Virus record (IMG/VR): IMGVR_UViG_3300028762_000011
Location: 1-64,000 of that record
Source: a virus
Length of the DNA stretch: 64,000 nt
Reading direction: 5' to 3' (one strand)
Part shown: positions 39,821 to 58,375 of the stretch, in pieces
How positions within the stretch are numbered: position 1 is the first letter of the stretch
How the letters are laid out: each line of letters starts with the position of its first letter
Program-made: the position numbers and the translations under genes
The notes under the pieces: generated by a model
What the model saw: only the letters and a program-made list of their open reading frames with translations
The model's database searches: none
What the model was told of the DNA's origin: nothing

Positions 39821-39848
39821 AGTATAATCAAATAAGAGTATTTTGCAA
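39821..39848 (-). promoter_or_regulatory. Sigma70-like promoter, leaderless start
   Basis: Minus sense: TTGCAA, 16-base spacer, TATACT (39821-39826), then six bases to ATG 39814. Overlaps the 3' end of the giant helicase gene. Lacks the TCGTGAC box, so it may belong to a different timing class. Confidence 0.65.
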
Positions 39849-42800
39849 GTCCTGTTTCTCGACATTGCGTTGATTGACGTATGCCGCCACGCCAGTATCG
39901 TCAAGCCCGTCCATCGAAGAAGTCATCAAATCACGTAACCCATACTTTTTGACCAACCTGTCGCGTGCGACGCGCTCGGCCGGATGGTCATTGATCAAGT
40001 CCGTCAACTCGACATCGTTGAGTTGACCGGTTCTGAAGATACGGCCGTTGCGCTGGGCATGAACCATAGCAGTATTCGGCACATCCATTTGCACCATCCA
40101 CTGCCCACGCTGGATGTTCATCCCCGTCGCCCCGGCATCGCTGGCAACCATGATGTCAGCCGACGCGTCCCCGGTCTCAGGATTGAACGCCAATCGCTTT
40201 TTCTCTTTCTCCACCGCCGAGTCGGCGCCGGTAAGCGACACCACGCGATGTCCTTCTTTCTCCAGCCGCGCCGTGATTGCCTTGACGGCATCGATCGAGT
40301 GCGCGAATACCACGCCAGGCTTGCCCTTGCGGTCGCCGGCCATCTTCGAGATGTGGTCGACCTTGGAGTTATCGGCGTGCGTGTTGAAAATTCGCTGCTG
40401 TGCCGACTGCTTGAGGATGCCGATGTTTGCCTGCAGGTCTTTGGCGATCGCCTCGTGTTGGTCTTCCGGCACGCCGGCGAACGACTGCGGCGAGATCGCG
40501 CGGATCGCAGCGACATCGACGCGCCCAGCCATGCGCGCCAAGCGGGCGTCACTGAAATGCTTGTCCATTTCGGCCATCGCGAGTTTTTGTCCACCTGACA
40601 TTGGCACGGTCTCGGTTTTCCGGTCGGCGCCGACATCAGGGTCAATTTTTGACGGGTAGACATATCGCGCCATCTCGCGCTTGAGTGCGTCCTTGCTGGC
40701 GAGCGTATCGGCACCGTACCGGCGCATGAAGGCGGCGCGGTCGCTGTAGCGGTCTGGGTCCATCTTGCTCATGAGGTCGAAGACTTCGCTGGCATCATTT
40801 TTCACAGGATCCCCGCTCGCGTGTAGCAGATACGGCGTGTTATCGCCAAGCGCATCGGCGACATTGGCGAGTTCGCTGTTTGACTTCCCGGCCCGGTTGA
40901 GAGTATTCTGCGACTCGTCGACGGTGAGATAATCAAAATCGATACCTTCCTTGTCCATTACTGACTTCATCCAAACTTTTCGCCCAGTCCGCGTCATCGC
41001 GTTCAGCCGCGCCGCCATCTCGCCGTCGGAGACGCCGGCATGGGCAGCGCCGAGGTGCGCCATGTCATCGCGGAACGACTGGTGCGTCATCACACAAAAG
41101 TCATGTCGCGGATTCTTGTAGGCGGCGATGCGTTCGGCCCGGTTTGCACCAGGCTGGCAGTGGAGATTGTATTTCCCTGGTTCGAGATACCGCAGCGCCT
41201 CGCCATTGAATTGCCCTTGCACGATCGAAGGCACAAGCGCCAGCCCGCGCTTGGCTTTTCCTTGTTCCTTGAGATTGGTGAACGAAGACAACTGCAACAG
41301 CGACTTGCCGGACCCTGTGCCGAAGGCAGCCACCACCCGCTTATTGGCATCAACCAGCTTGACAAGCCGCTGCCTGGCCGCGTTCTTGCCACCACTCATC
41401 GACGGCGCCCAAATCTTGGTCGGCTGCCCAGGCTTGAAATTCTGCCCGACCTTATCCATCATGGCCGCGACTTGGCGCTCTGCCGCGTGCCCAAGAGAAT
41501 GCCGCTCATCGGCGGCGACAGCGACCTCTTTAGCCTCATCTGGCGGACTGTCGTCGGCAAAGAACCCCATCTGTGACTGCTCGAATGCGTGTTGTTGCTC
41601 GCGCGCGGCATCGATTTTGTCGCTCACAGACCCAGCCGCGTACTTGCCGCCGCTGCGCTCGCGCAAGCTGTCAGTCAGCGCCCGCTCTTGCGCCATGCGC
41701 GCCTCACGCGCTACGGGGTCGACCGCATCCAAGTGGTTGAGGTTGTTGCGGATAACCGAGCGCCCGAGCCGGATCGGCTTATCGGGGTTGAGTTTGTTAT
41801 AGGTTTCCGCGAACGCCTTACCGACTTTCGATCGAATCAGGTCCTGGACCGCTGCGTAGGCGTTCTCGTTGCCGTGCATGGCATCGACATATTTCGACCA
41901 GTTCAGGCTCGACGACTTGATCTTGCCCGCCATCTCGTCACGGCGCGCGCGCCAGTCACTGTGCTCGGGGTTGTCGGTCTCTTCACCGAACATGTCGGTC
42001 ACCGTGCGCTCCGGTTCGGCTGCACCGTGTTTTTCGAAGTCTGCGCGCAACTCAGCGGCATCAGCATCCTCATGCGCGACATTGGCGTGAAAGAATTCGC
42101 GGATAGCACGCTGATCCTGGTCGGTGAGTTCGCCGATCGGCTTATAGGCAGCAGTTCCCTCTGGCGTAGCGGCCAGAGCCCGGTGCAGCGCGTCGACGGA
42201 CTTTTGATCGACATCGAATTTCTGCCGGTTCAGCGTCGACCGCGTGTTCCCGTACCGCTTCGATACGAACGCGTCTGCGTATTCGTCAAATTTCGGTGCC
42301 AGCGTCTCCGCGCGCAGCCGGCCGTCGCCAAGCGGCGCCACGGCGTCGAGCGCGGCCCGATACCCGGCGTTGTCGCCAGACTTCTGGAAGAACGCCTGAG
42401 ACTGGATATCGGCGATGATGTCGGCAGCGGGGTCGCCGTCGGCGGCACGACCACCGATATAGTCTCGAAGCGATTGCTGCAGGTCCGCGCCCGGGGTAAA
42501 AGGTTCTGCCAGCGACGGCGATGCCCCTGGTTTGACATCCATTACCAGATCTGGACGATTGGCCACGCCCAGGGGCAGCCAGCCGTCCTCATCCTCGTCG
42601 CCACGGATAATTGCGATGTTGCGCCGGACCTGCGCGACATCAGCGGCATTGACCGGTTTGGACAGGCGATCAAGACCAGCGCCGTTGATAGTCAGGAACT
42701 TGTCGCCAGCGACCTCATCCAGCGTGTAGTCGCCGCGTTGGAGCCCGATTGCGCGCGCGCGCTGGATCGCGGACTCTGGCGTGGTGCGGCCAAGCGATAC

Positions 42801-44351
42801 CTGAAAACTTTCTTTCTTCCCCTGCTTCAGAGCAACCACGAGCGCGGCATTGGCTTCGAGCTCGCCAAGCGTCTGGCCCATGACCTTTTGCGCGTCTGTG
42901 ACAGCACGGCGACGGCGCTGATTGAGTTCCTGGCCGGCCATGAGGTCGGATCCGCTTGCCATTTCACCCAACTCGATCTCGCGCGCGGTCTCCATGAGAT
43001 CGCGCGCGTCCGAGAGCGCTGACTCACTGGCCGCCATGTAGTGGTCGATGTGGAATTCCTGCATGCCGGCTTGGATGCGCTCCACCTGATCCGGCAAGTC
43101 ATTGTGGATCCGCCGCGCCAGGACTTGAGCGGCGCCAGCAATACCGAGTACGTCCACGACAGACCTGTCCACCAGCGCGTCGCCACCGACGGCCAGCGCC
43201 AGCGAGTTGATGCTGTTGTAGGCACCGACACCGATGTACTTGCCCAGTGTCTCTATCGGCTCATCGCCGGCAAGCCGCTGGAATTCTGACAGGAACGCTT
43301 TCGTCTTGACGGTGCGCAGGTCGGACTCGATATCGTGCTCAATCTTTTCGTCGGCATCGGGATCGGCGGTGTACTCGATCACGTACGCTTTTGGTTCGGC
43401 CGCTGTCTTTGCAATTTCCTTGTTGGCTGCTTGCGCCTTTTGCTGTACCTGCTTGAGCGCTTTCTGCTCTTTGACGAGTTCCATGGCGGCGCGGGCGTCG
43501 ACGAGTTGCACATGCGCGTCGGCGCTGACAAGCGGCTCCCTGATAGTCGCCAGTTCGATCGCCACCATCTTGGCGGTCTCGCCCTTGGCGACTGCGGCGT
43601 TGCGCTGCGCCGGCGTCATCGCATCTTGCTTGGCCTGTTTGCTTGCCTGAACCTCTTTGGCGAGGTCGGCTTCGGTGAGCCCAGCCTTTTCAGCGCGGTC
43701 GGCGTATTTCGGCGCGAAGCCAAGGCCACCGGTTTCCGCCTTGACTGGGTTCAGGTCCGCCACGGACAGCACGTCAGGGTCTTTCGATTCCAGCGGGATC
43801 TCGCCAATATCGGCTTCCATGCGCGCCGCCGCGTTGTCGACCAACATCTTTTTCTGGAGGTTGACTGCCTCGTTGGCGCGCGCCACCAACTCGTTGTGGA
43901 ATTTTGCGCGGACCTTGGCCGCCGCCGCCGGCGACATGTCGGCGACCTTGGCCTCTGGGAATTGCAGCGTCTCCGGCGCCCACTTCATCTTGGCCGCCAC
44001 CTTTTGCACGAATTCCTGTTCCTTTCCAGCTACCTGGCGCTTGACGTCTGCATGCGCTTTTTTCTTCGACTCCACCAGGCCAGCCTCTTTATCGGCTTTG
44101 CGCTGAGCCTTGTCGGCTTCGACCTTGTTCTTTTTCTTTTCTTCGGCTTCGCGCTTGTAGTCGGATTCACTGCGAACGCCACGGATCTTGAGGTAGTTGA
44201 GTTTGCCACCGGCGCCACCGATCACATGAGCACTGCCATCGGCATTGGGTTGGATCAACACCGGCTGACCTTTTGTGCCTGGGCCATTCGGATGGACTGA
44301 GATCCAGCGCGCACCGGCCGGAATAGATTTGAAAAACAGAATAGGCATCAT
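39828..44351 (-). CDS. Giant polyvalent-type protein with C-terminal SF2 helicase
   Basis: 1507 residues from ATG 44351 (ATG 44360 and 44348 are in frame). Opens with PILFFKSIPAG, then HVIGGAGGKLNYLKIRG and a Lys/Glu-rich coiled coil (about 70-160). Helicase near the C-terminus: motif I FGTGSGKSLLQ (about 1005), motif II VDESQN (about 1143), ATP-hydrolysis motif HAQRNGRIFRTGQ (about 1434). The long middle is helical without a domain I can name. Size, opening and helicase resemble phage proteins packaged and injected with DNA. Starts at a late-type promoter. Confidence 0.75.
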   Translation of the reverse strand: MMPILFFKSIPAGARWISVHPNGPGTKGQPVLIQPNADGSAHVIGGAGGKLNYLKIRGVRSESDYKREAEEKKKNKVEADKAQRKADKEAGLVESKKKAHADVKRQVAGKEQEFVQKVAAKMKWAPETLQFPEAKVADMSPAAAAKVRAKFHNELVARANEAVNLQKKMLVDNAAARMEADIGEIPLESKDPDVLSVADLNPVKAETGGLGFAPKYADRAEKAGLTEADLAKEVQASKQAKQDAMTPAQRNAAVAKGETAKMVAIELATIREPLVSADAHVQLVDARAAMELVKEQKALKQVQQKAQAANKEIAKTAAEPKAYVIEYTADPDADEKIEHDIESDLRTVKTKAFLSEFQRLAGDEPIETLGKYIGVGAYNSINSLALAVGGDALVDRSVVDVLGIAGAAQVLARRIHNDLPDQVERIQAGMQEFHIDHYMAASESALSDARDLMETAREIELGEMASGSDLMAGQELNQRRRRAVTDAQKVMGQTLGELEANAALVVALKQGKKESFQVSLGRTTPESAIQRARAIGLQRGDYTLDEVAGDKFLTINGAGLDRLSKPVNAADVAQVRRNIAIIRGDEDEDGWLPLGVANRPDLVMDVKPGASPSLAEPFTPGADLQQSLRDYIGGRAADGDPAADIIADIQSQAFFQKSGDNAGYRAALDAVAPLGDGRLRAETLAPKFDEYADAFVSKRYGNTRSTLNRQKFDVDQKSVDALHRALAATPEGTAAYKPIGELTDQDQRAIREFFHANVAHEDADAAELRADFEKHGAAEPERTVTDMFGEETDNPEHSDWRARRDEMAGKIKSSSLNWSKYVDAMHGNENAYAAVQDLIRSKVGKAFAETYNKLNPDKPIRLGRSVIRNNLNHLDAVDPVAREARMAQERALTDSLRERSGGKYAAGSVSDKIDAAREQQHAFEQSQMGFFADDSPPDEAKEVAVAADERHSLGHAAERQVAAMMDKVGQNFKPGQPTKIWAPSMSGGKNAARQRLVKLVDANKRVVAAFGTGSGKSLLQLSSFTNLKEQGKAKRGLALVPSIVQGQFNGEALRYLEPGKYNLHCQPGANRAERIAAYKNPRHDFCVMTHQSFRDDMAHLGAAHAGVSDGEMAARLNAMTRTGRKVWMKSVMDKEGIDFDYLTVDESQNTLNRAGKSNSELANVADALGDNTPYLLHASGDPVKNDASEVFDLMSKMDPDRYSDRAAFMRRYGADTLASKDALKREMARYVYPSKIDPDVGADRKTETVPMSGGQKLAMAEMDKHFSDARLARMAGRVDVAAIRAISPQSFAGVPEDQHEAIAKDLQANIGILKQSAQQRIFNTHADNSKVDHISKMAGDRKGKPGVVFAHSIDAVKAITARLEKEGHRVVSLTGADSAVEKEKKRLAFNPETGDASADIMVASDAGATGMNIQRGQWMVQMDVPNTAMVHAQRNGRIFRTGQLNDVELTDLINDHPAERVARDRLVKKYGLRDLMTSSMDGLDDTGVAAYVNQRNVEKQDLQNTLI

Positions 44352-44373: not shown

Positions 44374-44402
44374 CGACGCCAATTCACTGTGTTTTGTTGC
44401 CG

Positions 44403-44693: not shown

Positions 44694-44706
44694 CGGCGCA
44701 AAAAAC

Positions 44707-44909: not shown

Positions 44910-45698
44910 ATGAATCAAATAATCACAATAGCAACCGCCAAAATCGGCGATAACTCGGTGCAGACCGTTAATGCTCGGGATTTGCATACGTTTTTGGAAG
45001 TCGGCAAGGATTATTCAACATGGTTGAAAGATCGCATCAGCCAATATGGGTTTGTGGAAAATACCGATTATCTTTGCTCCCCGATTTTGGGGAGCGAAGG
45101 TCGAGGTGGTCAAAACCGGGTTGACCACCACATCACCACCGACATGGCGAAGGAACTGTCCATGGTCGAGCGGAACGCCAAGGGCAAGGAAGCGCGACAG
45201 TATTTCATCGAGTGCGAGCGCGTCGCGCAGGCCGTGCCGATCGCCGCGCCGGCGGTCACCATGCATCCAGCCGTGCAATCAGGCTACATCACCGGCGACA
45301 TGTATAAGCACTTCAAGGAAAGCGGGTTAGACGACACCAAAGCGCTCAGTATGGCATCCGTGGCAGCATATCGTGCCACTGGTATAGCTTTGGTGGAATT
45401 CATGCAGATTGCCACCGCCAAGGTGAAGGTGGTGGAGTCGTCGGCATCGACACAGCAAGAGCAATTGCCGCTTCCATTGACATCGGTTCAGTCAAATAAA
45501 AAACTCTACTACGTGTATGAGTTGGCAAACATGTTTGGTCGCTCAATTGCCGGGACGAACTGTCTGCTGACGCGCCGGAAATATCAAGAGCGTCGTCACA
45601 ACGGCCGCTACTATTTGCTTAAAGCTGGCGAGAAGTTTGGGGCAATCGACGCCAATGGTGAATTGATGTGGAAAAATGATGTACTGGAAGCGCGATAG
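44910..45698 (+). CDS. AntA/AntB-type antirepressor
   Basis: 262 residues. The N-terminal VNARDLHTFLEVGKDYSTWLKDRI and GFVENTDYLC are diagnostic of the AntA/AntB family, followed by DHHITTDMAKELSMVERNAKGKEAR. The C-terminal part (LYYVYELANMFGRSIAGTNCL) is a separate DNA-binding-like domain. Antirepressors inactivate the lysogeny repressor. The only plus-strand gene between 33.5 and 60.5 kb, controlled by the repeat array and RNA before it. Confidence 0.88.
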   Translation: MNQIITIATAKIGDNSVQTVNARDLHTFLEVGKDYSTWLKDRISQYGFVENTDYLCSPILGSEGRGGQNRVDHHITTDMAKELSMVERNAKGKEARQYFIECERVAQAVPIAAPAVTMHPAVQSGYITGDMYKHFKESGLDDTKALSMASVAAYRATGIALVEFMQIATAKVKVVESSASTQQEQLPLPLTSVQSNKKLYYVYELANMFGRSIAGTNCLLTRRKYQERRHNGRYYLLKAGEKFGAIDANGELMWKNDVLEAR

Positions 45699-45776: not shown

Positions 45777-46094
45777 CTAGGCGTCGGCATCAATGAGGAT
45801 AAACTTCTCGCCAGCGTCATCAGTCAACTCGACCGCGCCCATGCCAAAGCATGCATTCTCCTGATATTCCTCGACCGCGCCAGAGAGCGCACTCTGCAAG
45901 TCATCAGGCGGCTCCATGCGCGCCGTCACAGAGGGATCGTCAAAATCACCAAGCAGGTACAGGTTATCGGCGGTATAAAACCGCTTCATCAGCGCCTTGA
46001 CGAAATACCAGTGTGTGCCGAAGTTGCGATAATTGCGCGGGTTGGCCTGCAGCAGTTCGAGCGTGCTAGCGGCGAATTGTTTTGGGTTGATCAT
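45777..46094 (-). CDS. Small phage protein coupled to the methyltransferase-helicase
   Basis: 105 residues; ATG 46094 overlaps the stop of the giant upstream gene (ATGA). NPKQFAASTLELLQANPRNY then a hydrophobic HWYFVKALMKRFYTADNLYLLG, ending acidic. No family recognised; coupling implies cooperation with the large protein. Confidence 0.58.
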   Translation of the reverse strand: MINPKQFAASTLELLQANPRNYRNFGTHWYFVKALMKRFYTADNLYLLGDFDDPSVTARMEPPDDLQSALSGAVEEYQENACFGMGAVELTDDAGEKFILIDADA

Positions 46095-49000
46095 GCTGCC
46101 ACCTCTTCGAATTTCGGCAGCATCTCGTCCAATGTGCGGGCCAGGTCATTGGCGTTGAGATGCGAGTTTTGGCGGTACGTCTGCATGCCTAAATCCTTCA
46201 AGGTGGTCTTGCCGATATCTGGGTGCTTGGCGGCGAGGTAGCGCAATGCATCCACCGAGTGACGCGCCAGCGGCATGTTGAGCAAACGCCCAGCATCTTT
46301 GGCCGCAGTTTCAGGCTTGGTACTAGATACCGTCATGGCAGATGCTAGGTCAGCGTATCCATTGTGTTGCGCAAGGGTTGTCAAGGCGTCGCGCACGGTG
46401 GTGCCACCGCCATATATCCCGCTCATCAACGCGTTTCCACTTTCCCCATACTTCCATATGTCCTTGTGAACCTCGTTATCACCACGAGACGACTTCGGCT
46501 GCACTTCTTGGAATGGTTTGTCCAGAACACCATCGTGCTTGGCCTTTGCGTACAGCACGGCCAGCGCCTTGCGCGGCCACTTCGGTGTGGTTCCGTACCC
46601 AATATCAGCCATCGGAACCGCTGCGCGGATGGCATCATGGAAGGTTGGCGCATGGCGTATGGTATCGCCCTGAACACTATGGAATGCCGATTTAGCATCC
46701 TTCTCGAATTCATGCCCGAACAATTCATTGCCGATCGACTTCCACCGGTTGTAGCTTTGATCGTGCTTACCAGGCATGCGCTGTACGAATACGGTCTGTC
46801 CTGGTCGGCTACGGTTGCGACCGGTCACATACTCAGTAGTGAACCGCTTAGCCTTCTCATCGTCGATATATGCCTGGATTGCCTTTTCCCGATGCTCGTC
46901 AGTGGGGAGCATGATATCGTGCTGGTCCGAAGCCGCCAACTTATGCGCCTCATACGATTCAGCGGCAACAGGCGTACCAGACGCATCAAGGAACCCCATA
47001 CCGCCATACGGAGAAGACCACTTGTAATCACGAAGACCTTCTTTCAAGCGGCTTTGCAGGGCCTTGTAATTGGAATGGATCACAGCAGACGGCATACCCT
47101 TCAGCGACTTCAGATCAACCACCGAGCCGACTGAATCTTCCGCAGCCGCCGATAACTTGGTAGCGATCACTGCCTGTTCATCGGCTTCGACATAGTTGAA
47201 AGTAGTGACGCCGGTTTCCATTTCCTTCAACGGAACCGATATAGCGCGAGCGTTTCCGAGTTCTCCGTAGCGGCGCATGGACACGTTTCCGCTGATCGGA
47301 TTAACGGAACTGATCACCCATTTACCAATGGTACCGTTCTTTTCGGCGACATCGAGTCCTACTCCAGCGCTCAATGCAGCGCCGGTCTCGGGATGGATCA
47401 CAACCGGGACTTTGCTGGTTAGCGCTTCCTTGGCGATGAAATACTTGTTTTTCACCAATTTATTGGTGGCTTGATCGATCTGTGACCGCAACCGCGCTGC
47501 GCTGGCGTTATCCTTGTTCTTGAGTTCGCCATAGGATTGCTTCTTCAACTGCAGACGCTTGAACTCATAGGCGGCATCGCGCGTTTGGTCGGCGCCGTAG
47601 CGCTGGGCCGCTGCAGCTTTATCGGCTTCGAACTTGGCACGCTCTGCGTCAGGATCGGCAGACATCATGATCAGCAGGTCGGACCGATCAAGTTTCCCCT
47701 CGCGCGCCAGATTCTCGACGGTATCGCCACCAGTCCACAAAATATCCTGCCAATCCTTTTTCGCCATCATGGATTGGTATCGGTAACCGTCAAACGAACC
47801 CTTGCTCATGTAGGAGTGAATGCGCACAGCCTCATTGATATTACCCTGGCGCAGTCCACGGCCATTGCGCTGTTGCATGCTGGCCGGGTCCCAAGGAAAA
47901 TCGAAGTGATGGATATCGGTTGTCTTTTTCTGCAGGTTGACGCCTTCACCCATGGTCGCGGTGTTGCCAACCACGGCATCGAGTTTGCCGGCATTGAAGG
48001 CGTCGGCGATGTTCTGGCGCTTGGAGGATGATTCCGCTTCTGAGGCATTGATGATGGCGATTCGCTTGCGGTCCATGCCGGCGCGCACGAGTGCTTCGAC
48101 AATCTTTTGGTGCGCTTGCACGCTGTCACAGAAAACTACCTGACCCCCGTCTTTGGCACCGGCCGCGATCACCTTGGCCGCATCTTCATATTTTGGACTG
48201 ACTTCGCCAACATATTTTTCAGGGTCAAGTAGTTCCAAATCAAGAGCCGCTTTCCCCATCTTGCTCATGATCGAGAAAATGTGTGCGTCTCCGGTAGCGT
48301 CTTTTTCCTTGGCCGAGTCAATCAGGTCCTGGCGCAATCCCGCGTAGACGGCTTGTTGCTCTGCGTTCATGTCTACCAAGTGCATCTGGTCATCGCGCTG
48401 AGGCAGCACGAGCCCGACATCGGCAGCGGTTTTGCGGTCGATGTACTTGCGCATGATCTCGCGCAACTCACCCAAGTTCTTGAAGCCAGCGGTCACCATG
48501 GCGTCTTCGATGGTACCGGTGGTGGTGAGTACCTTGTCCTCGACAAACAAGCAGAACCGGTCCAGGAACTCTTCACTGTTGCGGATGCCGATCTGTTCAA
48601 ACGCTTCCGGCGCGATATGCGACAACATCGAATAAATTTCCAGCGGCGAGTTCTTTGTCGGTGTCGCGGACAGCAGATAAATGCCTTTGCCATCATTGTG
48701 CTCGCGCAGGTACCGCGTTTTCATGTTCAGGTCAAAGGCGCGCATGCTCTCGCCTTGGCCGCCAAGGAACTTAGGCGTCGAGCCGAATCTTGCCTTGGCA
48801 GAAAACAAATTTTTGAAATTTTGCCCTTCATCCACTAACAGCATGTCGACGCCAAGGTCATTCCAATAGATCGCGTCTGTTCGCTTCCCGAACTCACGAT
48901 TGGCAATCGCCTGATCGTACGCCTCACGGATTTTCTTCAACTTCTTGTCGCCGGCGTTGCCCTTCTTGTCGCCACGCTGCACCCAGAAGTCGGAACTGAC

Positions 49001-52000
49001 GTATTCGCCCTTGGTAATCGGGTCAATGTCGATTTCTGAGAATGTCGGTTGCGAGATGAAAATGAAGTCGTAATCGTTTTGCACCATGTCGTGTAGCTTG
49101 CGCGCACGAGTGGCGGCGTCATCGGGTTTGCTCTTGAGCATGCCATCGGCATCGCGCGTGTAGGTTTCACCTATCACCAGACAGCGGCTGCCAGGAAACC
49201 AGCGCTCGGCTTCGGCGACCCAGTTGGCCAGAACTGACTTCGGCACCACGAACGTGGGGCGCTGCGCGGTGCCATTGATTTTCGCCATGCGCGCTAGCAT
49301 GAGACCACGTACGGTCTTGCCGAGCCCGACGTCAGCCGCGACAATTCCTTTACCAGCGGACATCGCCCAGCGCAACCCCGCGTACTGGTATTGCTTCAGG
49401 CCCTCAGTATTCATGCCCGGGATATCAATTGTTGCGTCCGAAAACTCCTTCTGGACAAAGCCACGGAAGCGCCGGTTATACAAGTCTTCAACCTCGTCAC
49501 GGTATCGACTCGTCAGCAACCACGCCTTGAAGTCTTCATTGAGTGCCTGAATGTCAGGTAAGTCTTTCTTGCCGACGCCATCACGGTTTAGGTAATTGGT
49601 GAGCAACTTCTGTGCGCTCGAATACTCGCTGCCACCTGTGACCGTGTACCACGCATCTGCAAACTTGATCGATATGTCTGGGTGCTTGCGCTCCCAGTCG
49701 TTACCGGAATTGTTCTTTTTGTCGTTCAGGTAGGCTTCGAGTATGGTTGTAGGCAGGAACGCGGTGTTGACCTGGATGTCGACGTCTTCGAGCGACTTCG
49801 GGTCGATGGCGTCTTCTAGGCGTTTTGCCTGCAGCGCATATTTTTCTGCTAGTCCTTCACGGAGTTCGCCTTGTGCTGTCGCTGCGCGGACCCCATCCAG
49901 CTTCGGCCAGAGGTCTCCGGTAAGGTAAATGTCCATGGTCGTCCAGCGGTCGCCACCTGCATAGGCGTAGTCGGACGAGGCAAAGAGATGGTCCTCGACG
50001 TCGGCAACTGGTTTGTCCATGCGCGCCGCCAGATCGGCAACTGTGAATAGGCCATTGTCATGCTCGATCGCAAGCGACTGCGCAGCGGTCTCGAACGACC
50101 CCTCGACGCGCTGCACAGTAGCCCCAGACACCACATCAGACAGCGTGCCGTCGGGTTTGACGGCGCCAATGAGACGATACAAAACGCGATCTTGCGATGC
50201 CGCCAACAACAAATTCTTGTTCTTTCCCGGGTTCCCATGCGCATCGACGTAAGCCTGAACGCGCTCGGCCAGGCCGACCCGGTCGCCACCGGCGATAGCT
50301 GACTCAATATCGCGCGCGAGCTGCTGGGCATCGGTCACATCGGCAGACTGCATGAACTCGTCGACACGGTGCCAGCGCGGCGGCCGCCCCTGCAGAATAT
50401 AGTCAATGCCATCAACCGTCTTGGTATCGCCGACCTTGCCGACAACGTAATTGCGTTTCACGGCGGCGCCGAGCACCCGCTTGCGGTCGCCATCATCATC
50501 GAGTGCGTCAACGACTTCCTGCACGGTAGGCGTCGGCGTCTTGAATTCGTCTGGTTGCCATGTACTGATGCTATCTGGGACGCCGATCATACTCCCGGCT
50601 ACCGTGATGTCATTGCCGATTCCGGCCTTCGCCCGCCAGCCCGCTTCCATTGTACCGAAGACTGAATCAGCACCACGCCCTTCAAAATAGTTTCCTGACA
50701 AGTAATCCTCGTCCCAGACGCCGAGTTTCTTCATGGCCGCGCGCCCAGCAGACTTCAGCGCCGCCGCTACATCATCAGGACGTTTGCGGAAGAACACAAT
50801 ATCTGTCGTCACTTCGGTATGGCTGTGCTCGAATGCCGTGTTTGGCATGCGAATGGCGCCGAGAAATTCGCCTTTGCAGAGTAGGCGCTGGCGGACCTTT
50901 CTGCCGCTGCTGCTGTCGAGCACGCCAGTGGGCACGATCATCGCCACCACGCCGCCGGGTTTGCACTTATCCAGCGACGTATCGAGGAAGTAACCTTCTG
51001 CGGTGGACAGTTCCGGCTTATCGTCTTTGATGAGACTGCCGCGGAGTCCGAATGGCGCGTTCCCGATGACTGCATCGAACTGGCGGTCACCATCGGATGT
51101 AGCGAAACGCTCCAGGCTGGAATTGACGATTTCATGGCGGTCACCATGCAGGACATCGGCGATCGCTGCGCTGGTCGGGTCGAGTTCGACGCCGGTAAGG
51201 CGCACGCCGACCGGCGCAGTATGCGCAAAAACGCCGGTCGCGCAGGATGGTTCCAGCACAGTGCCATGCGTTACGCCGAGCCGCCCCAGGACTGTCCACA
51301 TGGACTTCGCCACTTCCTGGTCGGTATAGAACTCGTTCAAGCTGTCGCCGCAGCCACCGTTACCGCTGTATTGGCGCAAGACAGCGCGATCGCTGTCGGT
51401 GATGTCTTTGCCGGAATTGACGATATCGAATGCTTTTTGGTTGATTTCGCGGCGCCTGGCTTTGGTGATGCCGGCGGGGACGCCGAATGGGCCTTGCTCG
51501 ACTGCTGACGCTGGCGCAGCGGCTTCGATAGGATGTGGTTCGACAGGCGCCACATGCATTGAATACTCTACTGCTTTCGCACGCGAAATCGCTGGTGTGG
51601 TGCCAAGATGCTTCTCGCGAATGAACCAGCCACCGTCCTTTTTGAACGTGTATTCGTCAATGGCCTTGGCCTGGTCAGCGCTCAGATCATGCCGAACCAC
51701 GCCGCGCAGCGTCTTACCGCGCCCGGTGACGTGTTCGGTTATTTCATGTTTTGTTGCAGGTTCAGCCGATTCCGTTGCAATTTCAGGCTCTATTGGCGCG
51801 GAAAACAGGTCCGGCGTTTCGCCGACTGTAGCTGTAGGTACGGTGATAACGAACTTCGCCGCCACTTGTTCAGGTGTGATTCCATCCAATTTCGCCATTT
51901 CGGCGATCAGACGCTGGCGCTGCGGTTCCGTCATGCCTGACAATGTATTGGAAAGCCGCTCGGTGCCGCCATGTGCGGCAATGAACGAATCAAGCTTCTT

Positions 52001-52186
52001 GTGCCGAGGCGCAGTATCGTGCTTCAGTTTGATTTTTTGGATGCGCGTATGCGGTGCCACTACGGTACCATCGGCACGCACGCTCGCTCCGACATGGACA
52101 GGCGCACTAAACAAGCCAAATTGCTCGGATTTGAAGAATATCAGCATCGCAGTGGCCGTCAGATTGGGATTCTGACAGCCTACCAT
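46091..52186 (-). CDS. DarB-like polyvalent protein: DNA methyltransferase plus SNF2-type helicase
   Basis: About 2031 residues. Opens with IFFKSEQFGLFSAPVHVG then ASVRADGTVVAPHTR, a segment common to injected polyvalent proteins. N6-adenine-type methyltransferase at about 265-480: motif I VLEPSCATGVF, catalytic motif DAVIGNAPFG (variant of NPPF/Y). Helicase at about 930-1420: DVGLGKTVRG, LVDEGQN, LLSATPTKNS, NGRGLRQG. Phage P1 DarB has the same order; it is packaged in the head and protects DNA from type I restriction. Start taken at ATG 52186, overlapping the upstream stop. Confidence 0.85.
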   Translation of the reverse strand: MVGCQNPNLTATAMLIFFKSEQFGLFSAPVHVGASVRADGTVVAPHTRIQKIKLKHDTAPRHKKLDSFIAAHGGTERLSNTLSGMTEPQRQRLIAEMAKLDGITPEQVAAKFVITVPTATVGETPDLFSAPIEPEIATESAEPATKHEITEHVTGRGKTLRGVVRHDLSADQAKAIDEYTFKKDGGWFIREKHLGTTPAISRAKAVEYSMHVAPVEPHPIEAAAPASAVEQGPFGVPAGITKARRREINQKAFDIVNSGKDITDSDRAVLRQYSGNGGCGDSLNEFYTDQEVAKSMWTVLGRLGVTHGTVLEPSCATGVFAHTAPVGVRLTGVELDPTSAAIADVLHGDRHEIVNSSLERFATSDGDRQFDAVIGNAPFGLRGSLIKDDKPELSTAEGYFLDTSLDKCKPGGVVAMIVPTGVLDSSSGRKVRQRLLCKGEFLGAIRMPNTAFEHSHTEVTTDIVFFRKRPDDVAAALKSAGRAAMKKLGVWDEDYLSGNYFEGRGADSVFGTMEAGWRAKAGIGNDITVAGSMIGVPDSISTWQPDEFKTPTPTVQEVVDALDDDGDRKRVLGAAVKRNYVVGKVGDTKTVDGIDYILQGRPPRWHRVDEFMQSADVTDAQQLARDIESAIAGGDRVGLAERVQAYVDAHGNPGKNKNLLLAASQDRVLYRLIGAVKPDGTLSDVVSGATVQRVEGSFETAAQSLAIEHDNGLFTVADLAARMDKPVADVEDHLFASSDYAYAGGDRWTTMDIYLTGDLWPKLDGVRAATAQGELREGLAEKYALQAKRLEDAIDPKSLEDVDIQVNTAFLPTTILEAYLNDKKNNSGNDWERKHPDISIKFADAWYTVTGGSEYSSAQKLLTNYLNRDGVGKKDLPDIQALNEDFKAWLLTSRYRDEVEDLYNRRFRGFVQKEFSDATIDIPGMNTEGLKQYQYAGLRWAMSAGKGIVAADVGLGKTVRGLMLARMAKINGTAQRPTFVVPKSVLANWVAEAERWFPGSRCLVIGETYTRDADGMLKSKPDDAATRARKLHDMVQNDYDFIFISQPTFSEIDIDPITKGEYVSSDFWVQRGDKKGNAGDKKLKKIREAYDQAIANREFGKRTDAIYWNDLGVDMLLVDEGQNFKNLFSAKARFGSTPKFLGGQGESMRAFDLNMKTRYLREHNDGKGIYLLSATPTKNSPLEIYSMLSHIAPEAFEQIGIRNSEEFLDRFCLFVEDKVLTTTGTIEDAMVTAGFKNLGELREIMRKYIDRKTAADVGLVLPQRDDQMHLVDMNAEQQAVYAGLRQDLIDSAKEKDATGDAHIFSIMSKMGKAALDLELLDPEKYVGEVSPKYEDAAKVIAAGAKDGGQVVFCDSVQAHQKIVEALVRAGMDRKRIAIINASEAESSSKRQNIADAFNAGKLDAVVGNTATMGEGVNLQKKTTDIHHFDFPWDPASMQQRNGRGLRQGNINEAVRIHSYMSKGSFDGYRYQSMMAKKDWQDILWTGGDTVENLAREGKLDRSDLLIMMSADPDAERAKFEADKAAAAQRYGADQTRDAAYEFKRLQLKKQSYGELKNKDNASAARLRSQIDQATNKLVKNKYFIAKEALTSKVPVVIHPETGAALSAGVGLDVAEKNGTIGKWVISSVNPISGNVSMRRYGELGNARAISVPLKEMETGVTTFNYVEADEQAVIATKLSAAAEDSVGSVVDLKSLKGMPSAVIHSNYKALQSRLKEGLRDYKWSSPYGGMGFLDASGTPVAAESYEAHKLAASDQHDIMLPTDEHREKAIQAYIDDEKAKRFTTEYVTGRNRSRPGQTVFVQRMPGKHDQSYNRWKSIGNELFGHEFEKDAKSAFHSVQGDTIRHAPTFHDAIRAAVPMADIGYGTTPKWPRKALAVLYAKAKHDGVLDKPFQEVQPKSSRGDNEVHKDIWKYGESGNALMSGIYGGGTTVRDALTTLAQHNGYADLASAMTVSSTKPETAAKDAGRLLNMPLARHSVDALRYLAAKHPDIGKTTLKDLGMQTYRQNSHLNANDLARTLDEMLPKFEEVAA

Positions 52187-52923
52187 CACGATGACTTGGT
52201 GGTTTCCTTGAAGAACAGCACAGCCTTAATCATCGCAGGCTTGTCATACGTAGCACGCACCTTGGCGACGAACTCGTCAACCGGCATGGCGGTGATCGGC
52301 CCCAGAAAGCGCGGGTCATCGTAATTGCGCAAAAATGCCGCGCGCGCCGCAGTCTCATTGGGGAAGTTGACCATCACTTTGTCCTCGTCGTAGCGCTCCC
52401 AGTCGCCGACTTTGCGCTGGCGCACCACATAGACCTGCGTGGCGTCTTCATCCGGCCCGACAAATACGTCGACCTCATCGCCATCGGTGCCTTCACTCCG
52501 GCAGAAATAGCCGTATGGGCGCACCATGGTGGTCGACCACTTGTCGCCATTCGGCTTGGTGCCGCTGCGCGTCGATCCCGCCTCGTTCTCGACGGCGATC
52601 TCAAGTCCATGCCAGGCGATGCGCCGCTTTTTGTAGTTGCCAGCGGCGATCTGGGCTTCGGTCGGTTGGGCCTTGACGAATAGCACGGACTTCACCATCG
52701 GCACCCCAGCCATATCAGCCTGTTCGCACTTGCAGATGGGGCACATACCAGGACCGCCGCAGCGCGCTTTGATCATATCGGGGCGTGGATTGACGTGGCC
52801 GTGCGACTTCCCGGCATTATGGTAGGCGGCGGCGACTGCCTGCGCGCGCGGATGTCCGGCACGAATCATTTCGGCTATGTTGGAACTGATCACGGATTGG
52901 CTGTCGCCTGATGCGAGTGGCAT
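52186..52923 (-). CDS. Polyvalent protein with inorganic-pyrophosphatase-like domain
   Basis: 245 residues. N-terminal [26 protein letters not shown] is a short helical module found at the start of phage virion proteins; a [14 protein letters not shown] zinc motif follows. After VLFVKA (about 80-85) comes the main domain: [20 protein letters not shown], then [15 protein letters not shown], as in pyrophosphatase-like domains described in polyvalent proteins. The end repeats the hydrophobic tag (VLFFKE). Lies between the minor head protein and the DarB-like gene, coupled to both. Confidence 0.65.
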
Positions 52924-55130
52924 TATTTCTTCCTCAAAATTTCACGAATGCGAGCGCCGAACTCGGCATCCTCACCCGGTAGATCATCAACCTCTTCAAG
53001 CCAGGAACCACGGCAATTATGAACTACTACGCCACGGCCAATAATGTACGATTCATCTTCTTCAACGCCAAAGTTATAAAGCAATTTATTTGTCACATGA
53101 CGCCTAGAAATAGACGATACATCCGCACTTCCAAAAGTATATTCACCAGAATGGTTAAGCGCCAAACGAGCAATCGATTCAGCCACCTTATGCGGTGATT
53201 CTTTTGCATTCAAAGAATCAAAACGCATTACATTCCAACCTGATAATTTTAGATCATCATCGCGCTTGCTATCACCGCCGCCAGATAATCTACCATGCCA
53301 TGGTTCACCATCTATTTCGACAGCAATTTTCTGTTCCGGCAATGCAATATCAATCCACCAATAACGCTTACGACCAGCAGCATCTGGATAATTTCTATCA
53401 ACTCGATGCTGAAGATCAACCGATATTCCTAGACACTCAATCATCTCGGCAATATCTTCCTCAATTGGGGATGGTGTGTAATTATGCTTTGATGCAGTCA
53501 GCCCACCTTTACGTTTTGATTCTGGAGTTTTCAACCAAGAATAACCAAGGGCACTTGAAGCAATACGTGCGCTTGCAGTTATTTCACGCCTCTGTTCGAC
53601 CGTCATGCCACGCATACGAATACGATTAGAATCAGCAGTTTGTTTTATGGCAGCGGCATATGCTATTGGATCACCAGTTGAAAATTGGTTTATTCCAAGA
53701 TGAACAGCACATTGGCTTGAGCATGATTTTATATGCGGGTGATGTGCATTAACAAACGGTTTTCTGCAAGTTTCACAAATTTTAGCTAATGCAGACACTT
53801 TATCGCCAATAACTATATCGCCAGCATTAACCCAACCCCTTTCGGTTAGAACAGGATGTTCTGGCGTCATTTCAGAAATCTTAATGCGATTTCTACCATC
53901 TTGTGAAATTTCAATCTGAATTACATCACCAGTATGACGAGCACCAGATAGAATCCATGTTACTTTCCGAAATCTACCTTTGTGTGTGAGAACTAGATCA
54001 CCAATAGAAATATCGCCAATCTTTTTCCAACCATCGACAGTATAAATATTAACATTTCTGCTGATGAAACAATTGGGATGCTGCGCGCCAGCGGCCACAT
54101 GGTACATCTCTTCCGGTTGCCTCTCGACCAATATCCCGCCTTGGCGCCGGCGCGGCGCGGCCGAGCGCCCGAGATTGGTCTTGCCGACCCATACCTGGGT
54201 ATCGCCATTCTTATCGACAGCACCCGGCGCGACAACCTCCAGCACCATGCCATCGATGCGCCTGCACCATGGGCAAGCGCCATGGTATTGCTCAAGGCGT
54301 CGCAACTTCTTGCCTTCCGGCATTGATGCCACGTAGCCCTGGTTGGAGTTCTCGACCGCTTCCGTCAACGCTATCCGCCGCCAATCCCGATTCAACTCCC
54401 CGAACGCATCAAACAAAGCCGTCTGCAAGTTGTTCATCGGAGCCGGATTACCCAAGGCATCGGCAGCCATCTTGAGTTGGATGATGGCGCGCATGGTCTT
54501 GCGGGTCGACGCCGCGAGTTCAACCACGTTTTCGCAGCCGCGCACGCGCGCGTAGTCGATGACGGCGCGCTGGACGGGAGTGAACGGGAATTCTGCGGCG
54601 GCAGCGGCGACGGTGGCAGGGAGTTTTTCGAGTAACACATCAACCTGCTTGGCCGATACCGTCGCCATGCTCGCCTGGACACGGCCCATGAGCACGGACC
54701 TGGTAGCCAGCCACTCGGCTTCGGTGCGCAGCGCATCCGGCGCCAGGTACTTGTTGCACAGCATGTCCACGCACAGCATGTAGTCATCGAGCGTGAACGT
54801 ACCCGGTGCCAGCGACTCCAGGTAGAGCTTGACCAACTTCATTTCGCTATCGGTCCAGCGCTCGTGCATGCCAGCCGGCACGACAGTGCGGTGCTGGCCG
54901 ACATGGCGCTCGCCGGCGAGCCATTGCATGAGTTCGTTTTTGAAGCCGTCGAGCCGCATCAAGCCGCGCTCGGTAAAGAGTTCGATCATGCGCGCCAGGA
55001 ACGGAGAATGGTGAACCGCCCATATCAGATCGGGATCGCCCTCACCAATGGCCTTGTGCAAGTGCTCCAGCGCGGAATTGGTATGGTCTTCGCAGCAGGC
55101 GCCGACATCGATGAGAAGTGGTTTTTCCAT
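52923..55130 (-). CDS. Mu F-like minor head protein interrupted by an intein
   Basis: 735 residues before splicing, 383 after. The host part contains [33 protein letters not shown] and QHPN then CRGSW, the conserved core of head morphogenesis proteins (Mu gpF/SPP1 gp7 type), which bind the portal. Residues 354-705 are an intein inserted exactly before the conserved Cys of HPNC. Start ATG 55130 lies six bases after a late-type -10. The host gene is GC-rich, the insert AT-rich. Confidence 0.85.
53016..54071 (-). mobile_element. Intein with Vsr/DUF559-like endonuclease
   Basis: 352 residues, Cys1 to terminal His-Asn, next residue Cys. Block [16 protein letters not shown], block [10 protein letters not shown]-terminal GRGVVVHN. 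The insert has a treble-clef-like CETC...CSSQC and then a PD-(D/E)XK nuclease: [20 protein letters not shown] with [13 protein letters not shown], as in very-short-patch-repair-like homing endonucleases, not LAGLIDADG. Thus unrelated to the intein at 436-1488 in its nuclease. Confidence 0.9.
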
Positions 55131-55676: not shown

Positions 55677-55681
55677 AAATC

Positions 55682-55765
55682 TGGTGGATGCGGCTGGATT
55701 CGAACCAACGCGCTGTTAAGACCTGCTCTACAGGCAGGTGCCATCAACCACTCGGCCACGCATCC
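55682..55765 (-). tRNA. tRNA-Tyr (GTA)
   Basis: Acceptor GGATGCG/CGCATCC, discriminator A, encoded CCA. D arm GCC...GGC with GTGGTT loop, anticodon arm CCTGC-CTGTAGA-GCAGG giving GTA, long class II variable region of about 13 bases, T arm GTTGG-TTCGAAT-CCAGC. All arms pair; likely functional. Confidence 0.92.
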
Positions 55766-55973
55766 TGAAACTGGTGGAGGACTTTCACCTCCTGCCAACC
55801 GCAATTGTAATCGTACCAATGCGTTGGTCTGAATTGACTGCTTGGCACCATCGCATGCATTCTCCGATGCGGCATCAATTCTCTTCTAATCGTGGCCGAG
55901 CATCAGTGAATGCAGTCAACGACTCGGCTATTCCCCTGTACAGGGTTACCACTTTGCGCTCTCACGGTGTTTC
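55766..55973. other. Structured spacer between tRNA genes
   Basis: 208 bases without an ORF. Contains the minus-sense hairpin-like GGAGG-TGAAAGT-CCTCC directly followed by ACCA, a stem CCAAC..GCA / TGC..GTTGG, and the palindrome CCCTGTACAGGG. The first looks like a T arm without an acceptor stem, perhaps a tRNA remnant. Confidence 0.35.
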
Positions 55974-56048
55974 TGGTTGCGGGAGATGGAATCGAACCAC
56001 CGACCTTCAGTTTATGAGACTGACGAGCTACCGCTGCTCTATCCCGAC
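55974..56048 (-). tRNA. tRNA-Met (CAT)
   Basis: D arm GAGC-loop-GCTC, anticodon arm TCAGT-CTCATAA-ACTGA giving CAT, variable AGGTC, T arm GGTGG-TTCGATT-CCATC, encoded CCA. The acceptor pairs at positions 3-7 but the first two pairs (G-A and T-C) do not match; an unpaired first position recalls initiator tRNA. CAT could also be Ile if the C is modified. Confidence 0.85.
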
Positions 56049-56141
56049 ACACGAATTGGAACTTCAGTAATTGGTGCCAATTCGTGTGCTGTCTCGAAAG
56101 AGACAGCGTGCCAAGTCTTTACATCCTTGGCTGGGTAACGA

Positions 56142-56483
56142 TTACGCTGCCGGAGCGGTTGGTGCCGGGGCCGCAGCAGGCGCAGCAACCGGTGCTTCTT
56201 CCAACGCCAGCGATACGGCTTCGCCGGCGACAGTGGTAACGGTAGCGATATCGCTGGCGTTGTCGGCGGAATCGGTTGCTGTGATCGTCGCAGTGCCGAC
56301 CTTGCCGGTGCCGGTAACGACAGCGGAAACGCCATCGCCGCCTTCGACGACAGTCGCAATGGTGTCATCGGACGAAGTGAAAACGACAGCGCCGTGCGCG
56401 GAAGTGACATTGCCAGCAGCATCTTTGAAAACGGCAAGAACGGTTTCGGTGAGCACGCCACCGACTTGGAAATTGATTTGCAT
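56142..56483 (-). CDS. Ig-like (Big_2-type) virion decoration protein
   Basis: 113 residues from ATG 56483. LTETVLAVFKDAAGNVTSAHGAVVFTSSDD... and GKVGTATITATDSADNASD are the alternating strands of a bacterial Ig-like domain, ending with an Ala/Pro tail. Such small proteins sit on phage capsids or tails and bind cell-surface sugars weakly. Located among head genes. Confidence 0.7.
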   Translation of the reverse strand: MQINFQVGGVLTETVLAVFKDAAGNVTSAHGAVVFTSSDDTIATVVEGGDGVSAVVTGTGKVGTATITATDSADNASDIATVTTVAGEAVSLALEEAPVAAPAAAPAPTAPAA

Positions 56484-56614
56484 GACTTTTTCAACCTTTA
56501 TGATAGTTAACCGCCGGGCCTCATGCCTATGGCGATGGAAGAGATCGAACATAAATTTTACCTTCACGACGAACAGGCGTATTACATCAAATTTGAACAA
56601 TGCTTGTCAAGCAT

Positions 56615-56791
56615 TTATTCAACTTTTTTTGCAGCAGCCTGTTCCTTGGCGAATTCGGCGGCGCGCGCTTGGACGGCGGCAGGAGCGCCCTTCAGCAACT
56701 CAGCCATGAATTCGGCAGGCGGCTCGGTGCCGCCGTCATAGCCATCAAAGTGGCTATGTGGTATTCCTTGGATTTTCTTTTCTTCAGCCAT
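56615..56791 (-). CDS. Small protein of unknown function
   Basis: 58 residues from ATG 56791, with AGGAGGTGA upstream. AEEKKIQGIPHSHFDGYDGG then an Ala-rich helix, AAAKKVE end. Strong ribosome site supports expression. In position between the kinase and the Ig-like gene; no family recognised. Confidence 0.52.
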   Translation of the reverse strand: MAEEKKIQGIPHSHFDGYDGGTEPPAEFMAELLKGAPAAVQARAAEFAKEQAAAKKVE

Positions 56792-56803
56792 GATATTCAC
56801 CTC

Positions 56804-58375
56804 CTACAAGAACAGTATAGGCCGAATCATAGCCTTTGTCATGATCTTTTTTGGTACAAGTGCGGGCGTTCCCTTGCCGCTAATCAGTTTTGGCCCTTCT
56901 TCCTTGCTGCGGTTGTTATCATGGAATGACCACGCGTCGACATTGTTCTTGATCTTGTCGAAATTGGCTTCGTTCTCGGTGTTGCCAAGCACCACCTCTG
57001 GCGGCACGTACCGGCCGGTTTCGCCACCGCCAGCGAACCGCGACATGGCGCGCTTGGCCGCCTCTTGCCGTGGCAGATGCATGTAATGCGCTTCCGTGCG
57101 GAATCCGGCGTCTTTGAACGAGTTGATCTTGTCTTCCAGCGTCTTGCCGGTTTTCATCGTGGCATCAAGTACCACGTTGACACCCAGGATCTTGGCCATC
57201 GCCAGCACGGTATCAAGAATATGCCCAGACTCTTCATGGACTTGGTGCGCGTTCCAACCCGCATATTCCGGCAACATGCCCTTGATGTGATCGGCATCGA
57301 GTACGATCGCGTTTTCTTCCTGATAGACCTTGCCGTTCAGCGTGGACTTTCCGGATCCGCCACGGCCACCGAGCGCGATGAAGGTTGGCTTCTGACCAGG
57401 CGCCGGCGTGGCCGCCTTGACGCGTTCATTCGAAAGCAGACCAGGCACCTTCTTGCCCTTCACCTCGACGCCATCGAATATGATCTTGCGGTGCATGGCC
57501 GCACGTTCCGGGTTCCAGACGCCATCCTGCGAGTGCTCTTGATCGGTCGGCTTGACAGTCCCAAGCTTTTCTACCGTCTTGGCGGCGCGTTCGCGTACTT
57601 CTGGCGGATGCGCGGCCATGATGCTTTCCGCCGAGGCGTTCGGGTCATCGTGCTGTTTGGCGAAGTCGGCCGCACTGAACTTGTCGGGATGAATGGTTTC
57701 GTCATCGTCATGCGGCGACGCGTCCGGTTTGTCGTCGCCATACCATTGGTGCGTCACGCTGGCATGCGGTATCCTATGCGTGGCGCCGGCACCATCCTGG
57801 ACGGTGTGGCCATCGGCACCACTGGCGATTACCTTACCGTGACCCTTGAATTCACCGTGATTGAACCCGACATGCGACGGCGCGGAATCGGCATGCGCAC
57901 GCTCGCGCGGTTTGGCCTGATCGGGATTGGTCCGCACCCATTTGTTGACCTGGACCCCGTTTTTGTCTGTTATCTGTTTGCGCGACAGACCAGGGCCAGG
58001 TGGCGCGCCATTGGCCTTGGCGAACAGTATCATGCGGTTACCTCGAAGCGACTTGTCCAAAACCATATCTCCTAACCTGGCGCTGGGATCGATGCGAAGG
58101 AATTTCTTCTTGCCGGCGGCATTGCCAACGATGGCACCGTCCTCGCCCTCGTCGATGACAGTGTATTTCACCGGCGCGCGCTTCTTATGCCCGAGCACAT
58201 GCTCCCACTTGACCTGGTGCGGCTTGTTTTCGTGGTGCACAGTCACGCCATGGCACCCGATCGAGCGCACTTGACCGCACGCTGGTCCGCTTGCGTGTTG
58301 GAAATAGATTTCGTCGCCGATCTCGGTGCCGGCGGCGAAATCGGTGGCATTACCTTTGACAGCAACTCGGCCCAT
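56804..58375 (-). CDS. Polyvalent-type protein with zeta-toxin-like kinase domain
   Basis: 523 residues. The N-terminal 115 residues are a beta domain; then RMILFAKANG (about 115-123), and QITDKNGVQVNKWVRTN as in injected phage proteins. C-terminal P-loop kinase at about 330-490: FIALGGRGGSGKSTL (Walker A), VLDADHIKGMLPEY, HEESGHI and a LDATMKTGKT helix fit the zeta toxin family, which phosphorylates UDP-GlcNAc or related substrates. Ends with a hydrophobic AMIRPILFL tag. Next to the portal gene, hence probably packaged. Confidence 0.72.
   Translation of the reverse strand: MGRVAVKGNATDFAAGTEIGDEIYFQHASGPACGQVRSIGCHGVTVHHENKPHQVKWEHVLGHKKRAPVKYTVIDEGEDGAIVGNAAGKKKFLRIDPSARLGDMVLDKSLRGNRMILFAKANGAPPGPGLSRKQITDKNGVQVNKWVRTNPDQAKPRERAHADSAPSHVGFNHGEFKGHGKVIASGADGHTVQDGAGATHRIPHASVTHQWYGDDKPDASPHDDDETIHPDKFSAADFAKQHDDPNASAESIMAAHPPEVRERAAKTVEKLGTVKPTDQEHSQDGVWNPERAAMHRKIIFDGVEVKGKKVPGLLSNERVKAATPAPGQKPTFIALGGRGGSGKSTLNGKVYQEENAIVLDADHIKGMLPEYAGWNAHQVHEESGHILDTVLAMAKILGVNVVLDATMKTGKTLEDKINSFKDAGFRTEAHYMHLPRQEAAKRAMSRFAGGGETGRYVPPEVVLGNTENEANFDKIKNNVDAWSFHDNNRSKEEGPKLISGKGTPALVPKKIMTKAMIRPILFL

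What the first reader, a model, noticed from the sequence alone, without database searches (positions are those of the whole stretch)
39828..58375. Block of injected-type enzymes interleaved with head genes
Within 18 kb lie a DarB-like methyltransferase-helicase (about 2031 aa), a second giant helicase protein (1507 aa), a pyrophosphatase-like protein and a zeta-toxin-like kinase, mixed with minor head and portal genes. P1 DarB is packaged and shields DNA from type I restriction. Having two giant helicases, one with and one without a methyltransferase, plus nucleotide-active enzymes suggests a multi-part defence-evasion package delivered with the genome.
Basis: partly seen in the sequence, partly recalled or inferred. 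Interest (0 to 1): 0.86.

Follow-up and report, generated by a model that had tools for sequence, protein, structure and literature searches.

The report
Phage enzyme cargo tagged for packaging
This bacterial virus has a slot among its shell-building genes that carries large enzymes, and each enzyme bears a short peptide that looks like the cutting site of the virus's own shell-maturation protease, which suggests they are loaded into the particle, trimmed, and delivered into the host with the DNA.

Summary

In relatives (best: Bordetella phage PHB04) this interval ranges from 1.6 to 19 kb across 29 intervals and holds different enzymes: a cargo slot. DarB-like and Ulx-like genes occur together (4 of 4 contigs).

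New point: the head proteins share conserved [L/M/F]-x-K-[S/A] sites (scaffold seven, protease five, portal two, MCP one), the expected signature of prohead-protease cleavage. The modelled protease matches T4 gp21 best. The window's four enzymes carry the same site next to a hydrophobic peptide (MPILFFK|S, MLIFFK|S, SVLFVK|A, MILFAK|A). In 14 genomes, 22 of 25 proteins of at least 1000 aa have it near the N-terminus versus 31 of 801 smaller ones.

This resembles T4 capsid-targeting sequences with lysine in place of glutamate. Packaging is well supported but not shown; anti-restriction is inferred from P1 for DarB/Ulx only. Roles of helicase, InPase and kinase remain open. Verdict: new variant of a known kind.

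The parts
58679..60484 (-). portal protein; predicted cleavage sites after K61 (MNK|AL, 60296-60310) and K590 (MTK|SFGLPIF, 58694-58723)
   Evidence: Pfam Phage_portal E=6e-17; K61 and K590 conserved in 98% of 60 sequences, followed by A/S (one T at K590), M/F/L mostly at P3
56804..58375 (-). zeta-toxin-like kinase fused behind a head-associated domain; internal linker LDK|SLRGNRMILFAK|A (58013-58060) and C-terminal MTK|AMIRPILFL (56807-56842)
   Evidence: Zeta_toxin E=6e-24; the N-terminal domain occurs as a solo gene beside the portal in relatives; coordinates
52923..55130 (-). minor head protein interrupted by an intein at 53016-54071 (352 aa); predicted site HLHK|A near the N-terminus (55047-55064)
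   Evidence: Hint/DUF559/MTES_1575; intein_Cterm TIGR01443 above cut-off; intein-free homologue in PHB04; coordinates
52186..52923 (-). polyvalent-type inorganic pyrophosphatase (InPase) with tags SVLFVK|A (52669-52689) and C-terminal MIK|AVLFFK (52207-52233)
   Evidence: PF18823 E=3.6e-45; coordinates
46091..52189 (-). DarB-like N6-methyltransferase plus SNF2 helicase; N-terminal tag MLIFFK|S (52127-52147) followed by PVHVGASVRADGTVVAPHTR (52043-52102)
45777..46094 (-). Ulx-like gene directly downstream of the DarB-like gene
   Evidence: phrog_1629 E=8.5e-16; present with DarB-like in 4 of 4 contigs
39828..44348 (-). second giant SNF2-type helicase, no methyltransferase; tag MPILFFK|S (44325-44348)
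   Evidence: phrog_62 E=2e-239, Helicase_C; tag lysine nearly invariant in 30 homologues
38571..39491 (-). prohead (head maturation) protease; predicted self-processing sites K26, K204, K215
   Evidence: phrog_1028 E=7e-27; AlphaFold2 pLDDT 81.5; best PDB fold match T4 gp21 5jbl, E=7e-5
37897..38574 (-). putative scaffold or core protein with seven conserved [LMFI]xK|[SA] sites
   Evidence: K22, 78, 99, 114, 138, 170, 185 conserved 89-100% in 63 sequences; no family match, so 'scaffold' rests on position and site pattern
36344..37858 (-). major capsid protein; predicted cleavage LQK|AL at K36
   Evidence: phrog_752 E=5e-90; K36 invariant, followed by A/S in 51 of 51

Best explanation
The block is a variable cargo slot inside the head-assembly operon of a PHB04-like contractile-tailed phage. 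The enzymes in it are made late, drawn into the prohead core by a short hydrophobic terminal peptide, and cut free inside the prohead by the phage's gp21-like protease at [L/M/F]-x-K|[S/A], the site used for scaffold, portal, capsid protein and the protease itself. They stay in the mature head and enter the next host with the DNA. There the DarB-like protein with its Ulx-like partner most likely shields incoming DNA from type I restriction, as in P1. The second helicase, InPase and zeta-like kinase are co-delivered effectors of unproven target. Shown here: gene content, slot variability, conserved sites, the tag on cargo, the predicted protease fold. Inferred: cleavage, packaging, injection and function.
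For: Conserved LMF-x-K-S/A sites in scaffold, protease, portal and MCP (alignments). Protease fold nearest to T4 gp21, predicted sites at K26 and K204-215 in or beside low-confidence linkers around the folded core. HK97 capsid protein is cut at K103/S104 (PMC10275583), so lysine at P1 has precedent; T4 gp21 cuts at L/I-x-E and a 10-residue capsid-targeting sequence directs IPIII into the head (PMC9026906). Tags on non-homologous cargo. Statistics: 22/25 giant proteins tagged versus 31/801 others, mid-protein control 1/25; non-redundant N-terminal K[SA] after a hydrophobic run 15 versus about 3.5 expected, and 3 and 2 in the mid and C-terminal controls. The tag follows the protein, not the locus: ART and NUDIX near the terminase carry it. 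In fHe-Yen8-01 the tagged ART and NUDIX are annotated as particle-associated. The constant N-terminal module is fused to different bodies: DarB-like versus MTase-LPD1 protein. Thermus phages with about 32% identical MCP keep LAK|A-type sites in head proteins, DarB-like and helicase. P1 DarB is packaged through its N-terminus (PMC9024508).
Against: No cleavage, packaging or injection has been measured for this phage. The Ulx-like protein and the PP2A-like phosphatase of PHB04 have no tag. The fHe-Yen8-01 particle list also includes primase and small methyltransferases, so it may contain carry-over; no paper for it was found. A few helicase homologues keep the K|[SA] site but have lost the hydrophobic run, so how docking works is unclear. 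Homologues are related by descent, so the P value overstates independence. The gene caller used is simple and misses some starts.
Confidence: 0.72

Rival explanations
1. The enzymes are late-expressed intracellular proteins that merely sit in the head operon; the tag-like peptides are folding elements of the N-terminal domains and are not processed.
For: No direct virion data for this phage; antirepressor, tRNA genes and small ORFs unrelated to the head also lie in the same block.
Against: The same hydrophobic-K-[SA] element is on unrelated folds (SNF2 helicase, MTase, InPase, HD, NUDIX, ART) and matches the conserved sites of the head proteins; relatives in fHe-Yen8-01 are particle-associated; P1 DarB is packaged.
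Confidence: 0.15
2. The enzymes are packaged, but the block is mainly a host-takeover and metabolic package rather than anti-restriction: the SNF2 proteins assist DNA entry or transcription, the InPase clears pyrophosphate or signalling nucleotides, and the kinase weakens the cell wall.
For: Iyer et al. propose such roles for InPase and zeta-like domains (PMC5512222); relatives carry RelA/SpoT, HD and phosphatase genes in the slot; methyltransferase motif IV in the window is NAPF, not NPPY.
Against: DarB-like and Ulx-like occur together in 4 of 4 contigs, as in P1, where both act against EcoB/EcoK (PMC12810830); P1 DarB itself has the variant motif NVPF.
Confidence: 0.35
3. The terminal hydrophobic peptide is not a packaging signal but an ejection or membrane-passage signal; packaging uses another determinant.
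For: Several tags are strongly hydrophobic (MIILLTK, MLILFLK); some packaged-type relatives have a minimal tag (MLKA).
Against: A cut at K|[SA] in the prohead would remove the peptide before ejection; the site matches sites in scaffold and portal, which are not ejected effectors.
Confidence: 0.12

Closest known systems
Phage P1 DarB/Ulx anti-restriction system
   Same: Methyltransferase plus SNF2 giant protein with a Ulx-like gene directly downstream; the P1 protein is a head component packaged through its N-terminus
   Different: No DarA, Hdf, DdrA or DdrB homologue was identified in the island; about 30% identity over half the protein; P1 capsid protein is cut at E120|S121 and no common targeting sequence was found among P1 Dar proteins, whereas here a shared K|[SA] tag is present; P1 DarB lacks that tag
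Phage T4 capsid-targeting sequence and gp21 protease (IPI-III, Alt)
   Same: Short terminal propeptide on internal proteins, prohead protease of the same fold, hydrophobic P3 residue, processing at both ends as for Alt
   Different: Lysine instead of glutamate at P1; cargo is giant multidomain enzymes (1500-2150 aa); hydrophobic tag with no detected relation to the T4 CTS
Polyvalent proteins of Iyer et al. 2017 (PMC5512222)
   Same: MTase-helicase dyad, InPase, zeta-like kinase, RelA/SpoT and LPD1 domains in phage late-gene contexts, predicted to be packaged
   Different: In the main-text passages I read no common packaging or processing signal is given; there autoproteolysis is ascribed to fused metallopeptidases, and no metallopeptidase domain was found in the window proteins
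Bordetella phage vB_BbrM_PHB04 (Phabquatrovirus)
   Same: Same slot, same order, 61% (DarB-like), 69% (helicase) and 69% (MCP) identity
   Different: PHB04 has RelA/SpoT, HD_4 and phosphatase genes instead of the kinase, and no intein in the minor head gene

Membership tests
DarB family (P1-type) | N6-methyltransferase fused to SNF2-like helicase, giant size | tested here: met
   Pfam and PHROG matches; motif alignment with P1
DarB family (P1-type) | adjacent ulx gene | tested here: met
   phrog_1629 E=8.5e-16; DarB-like and Ulx-like together in 4 of 4 contigs
DarB family (P1-type) | methyltransferase motif IV as in the family (canonical NPP(Y/F)) | tested here: inconclusive
   window and PHB04 read NAPF; P1 itself reads NVPF, so the canonical form is not a strict family criterion; two relatives read NPPY
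DarB family (P1-type) | virion component that protects DNA in cis from type I restriction | not testable with these tools
   needs virion proteomics and plating assays
Polyvalent proteins | effector domains of the published set in a phage packaging-gene context | tested here: met
   PMC5512222
Polyvalent proteins | fused metallopeptidase for self-processing (frequent, not universal) | tested here: not met
   no peptidase domain in the Pfam scan; release is proposed to be by the head protease instead. Not a defining feature, so membership stands
T4-type capsid-targeting sequence | short terminal peptide ending in the head-protease consensus, on several non-homologous cargo proteins | tested here: met
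T4-type capsid-targeting sequence | head protease of the gp21/assemblin fold | tested here: met
   Foldseek E=7e-5 to 5jbl, TM-score normalised to target 0.52-0.54
T4-type capsid-targeting sequence | cleavage C-terminal to glutamate (L/I-x-E) | tested here: not met
   conserved residue is lysine; so it works like a T4 CTS but is not filed as one
T4-type capsid-targeting sequence | peptide sufficient to package a foreign protein | not testable with these tools
   needs a reporter fusion
Zeta toxin kinases | P-loop kinase fold with Walker A and the following Asp | tested here: met
   GGSGKST at 339-345 and LDADH at 359-363; Pfam E=6e-24
Zeta toxin kinases | phosphorylates UDP-GlcNAc; paired epsilon antitoxin | not tested
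   no antitoxin search or substrate assay was done

The most novel reading that the evidence does not exclude
This phage lineage, from Proteobacteria to Thermus hosts, uses a portable, sequence-readable delivery code: a constant N-terminal module (hydrophobic peptide, K|[SA] cut site, often an RKDGTxV motif) placed in front of interchangeable giant effectors, much as polymorphic toxins keep one trafficking module and swap the toxic end. The code would let the injected proteome be read from genome sequence alone.
Probability: 0.5. Interest if true: 0.78.

Novelty: new variant of a known kind. Interest (0 to 1): 0.62.

Why it matters
Polyvalent proteins have been predicted to be injected since 2017, but a common packaging signal was missing; in P1 none was found among the Dar proteins. 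If the [LMF]xK|[SA] tag is real, one can predict from sequence which proteins these phages inject, test it with one mass-spectrometry run on an existing phage, and perhaps use the tag to load proteins into heads for delivery. It also ties anti-restriction cargo directly to head maturation.

Tried and rejected
Loose tag regular expression with a dipeptide control on all called ORFs: KA and KS were not outliers, because starts were mis-called and the pattern was too permissive; the stricter version and the conserved-site analysis replaced it. Structure of the first 1000 residues of the second helicase: AlphaFold2 pLDDT 73, pTM 0.45, mostly helical, no significant PDB match and no PDB sequence relative, so its role stays open. 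Scan against known defence systems: only generic SNF2/MTase similarity to DrmD, ZorD and DpdE, far below the NCBIfam cut-offs; not a bacterial defence system. Searching relatives by the intein-bearing minor head fragment found only the same phage population and weak matches to the endonuclease part. P1 DarB as a carrier of the same tag was rejected: residues 6-10 (MGVFR), which are required for packaging, are hydrophobic plus basic, but there is no K|[SA] site. No paper was found for fHe-Yen8-01.
Full report
What is there. The window is part of a 65,384-base virus record. Its 14-60 kb section holds tail and head genes, nearly all on the minus strand. From portal to prohead protease it runs: portal, a small ORF, zeta-like kinase, an Ig-domain ORF, two tRNA genes, minor head protein with an intein, InPase, DarB-like protein, Ulx-like protein, (AntA antirepressor on the other strand), second helicase, protease, scaffold, major capsid protein. 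Protein family matches are strong and listed in the observation check. Other assembled records carry the same sequence at 99.99-100% over long stretches.

Comparison. The nearest isolate is Bordetella phage PHB04 (61% for DarB-like, 69% for helicase and capsid protein). Related head modules were found in Aeromonas, Pseudomonas, Enterobacter, Yersinia, Morganella and Thermus phages and in 80 loci each for capsid protein and portal in IMG/VR. In 29 portal-to-protease intervals the length runs from 1.6 to 19.2 kb. The short ones hold the minor head gene and at most small ORFs. The long ones hold helicase (13), InPase (10), DarB-like with Ulx-like (4 of 4 together), RelA/SpoT or HD enzymes, a phosphatase, or a 1.2-1.7 kaa protein that shares the first ~230 residues with DarB-like but then has a different methyltransferase and an LPD1 polyvalent domain. 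This is a cargo slot with exchangeable contents and a constant N-terminal module.

The code. In homologues of the core head proteins nearly every highly conserved lysine of the scaffold, and specific lysines of protease, portal and capsid protein, sit in the pattern L/M/F - any - K - S/A: scaffold K22, K78, K99, K114, K138, K170, K185; protease K26, K57, K116, K204, K215; portal K61, K590; capsid protein K36. Scaffolds hold 7.4 such sites on average against 1.6 after shuffling; proteases 5.9 against 1.5. K57 and K116 of the protease lie within its folded region, so not every site need be cut. Many dispersed sites in the scaffold, one near the N-terminus of the capsid protein and sites at both ends of the portal are what a prohead protease target list looks like. 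The protease model (pLDDT 81.5) matches T4 gp21 best, then herpesvirus assemblins. T4 gp21 cuts after L/I-x-E (PMC9026906); HK97 capsid protein is cut at K103/S104 (PMC10275583). A lysine-specific version is therefore plausible; it is inferred, not shown.

The tag on cargo. The same site, next to a hydrophobic peptide, lies at the N-terminus of the helicase (MPILFFK|S), of the DarB-like protein (MLIFFK|S), ahead of the InPase domain (SVLFVK|A) and in the linker ahead of the kinase (MILFAK|A); InPase and kinase also have mirror-image C-terminal versions ([21 protein letters not shown]) like the portal end MTK|SFGLPIF. In 14 genomes, 22 of 25 proteins of at least 1000 aa have the element near the N-terminus against 31 of 801 smaller proteins (Fisher P about 1e-25, not corrected for shared descent); mid-protein windows of the same giants give 1 of 25. 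Of the three without it, one is a helicase that still has LAK|A (below the pattern used) and two look like tail proteins by sequence and position, not cargo; that last point is a judgement, not a family match. A stricter non-redundant test gives 15 N-terminal cases against about 3.5 expected, almost all cargo-type enzymes. The tag lysine of the helicase is nearly invariant in 30 homologues. ART and NUDIX proteins encoded near the terminase carry it too, so it travels with the protein. Thermus phages with about 32% identical capsid proteins keep LAK|A or FAK|A-type sites in capsid protein, scaffold, protease, DarB-like and helicase.

Is it packaged? The only experimental hint is the annotation of fHe-Yen8-01, in which the tagged 2.1-kaa ART and the NUDIX protein (minimal tag MLK|A) are 'particle associated'; that list also includes probable carry-over such as primase. 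P1 DarB is a head protein whose N-terminal 30 residues direct a reporter into the capsid; the authors found no shared signal among Dar proteins (PMC9024508). My estimates: packaging of the giant proteins about 0.85, processing at K|[SA] about 0.8, injection about 0.7, anti-restriction by DarB/Ulx about 0.65.

Function. DarB and Ulx of P1 act against EcoB/EcoK type I systems (PMC12810830), so the pair here most likely does the same. The methyltransferase motif IV is NAPF (P1: NVPF), so methylation itself may be weak or absent (inference). The second helicase matches SNF2/Helicase_C profiles, but its first 1000 residues give no fold match. InPase and kinase are members of the published polyvalent set, with proposed but untested roles.

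Noticed in passing
53016-54071 (-): A 352-aa intein with Hint and DUF559/VSR-like nuclease parts sits in the minor head protein, exactly before the Cys of the conserved HP(H/N)CRG(R/S)W motif; PHB04 and others lack it.
   Followed up: partly
44910-45698 (+): AntA/AntB antirepressor gene inserted on the opposite strand between helicase and Ulx-like gene.
   Followed up: no
6019-7071 (-): ORF that looks by eye like an IS200/IS605-type TnpB (OrfB) protein; no family search was run on it.
   Followed up: no
55682-56049 (-): tRNA-Tyr and tRNA-Met genes between minor head and kinase genes; relatives ST4 and phiT5282EW also carry tRNA genes near the portal.
   Followed up: no
52822-52911 (-): InPase N-terminus bears [30 protein letters not shown] (phrog_2423), a short module of unknown function seen on InPase proteins of some relatives; possibly another head-association module.
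   Followed up: no
[quoted passage not shown]
   Followed up: partly
L237:2065-8328, Thermus phage Lalka8: DarB-like protein starts MDLVRLYQELLAK|AEQPALF, resembling the tag and following residues of the window protein, so the tag is probably old.
   Followed up: partly
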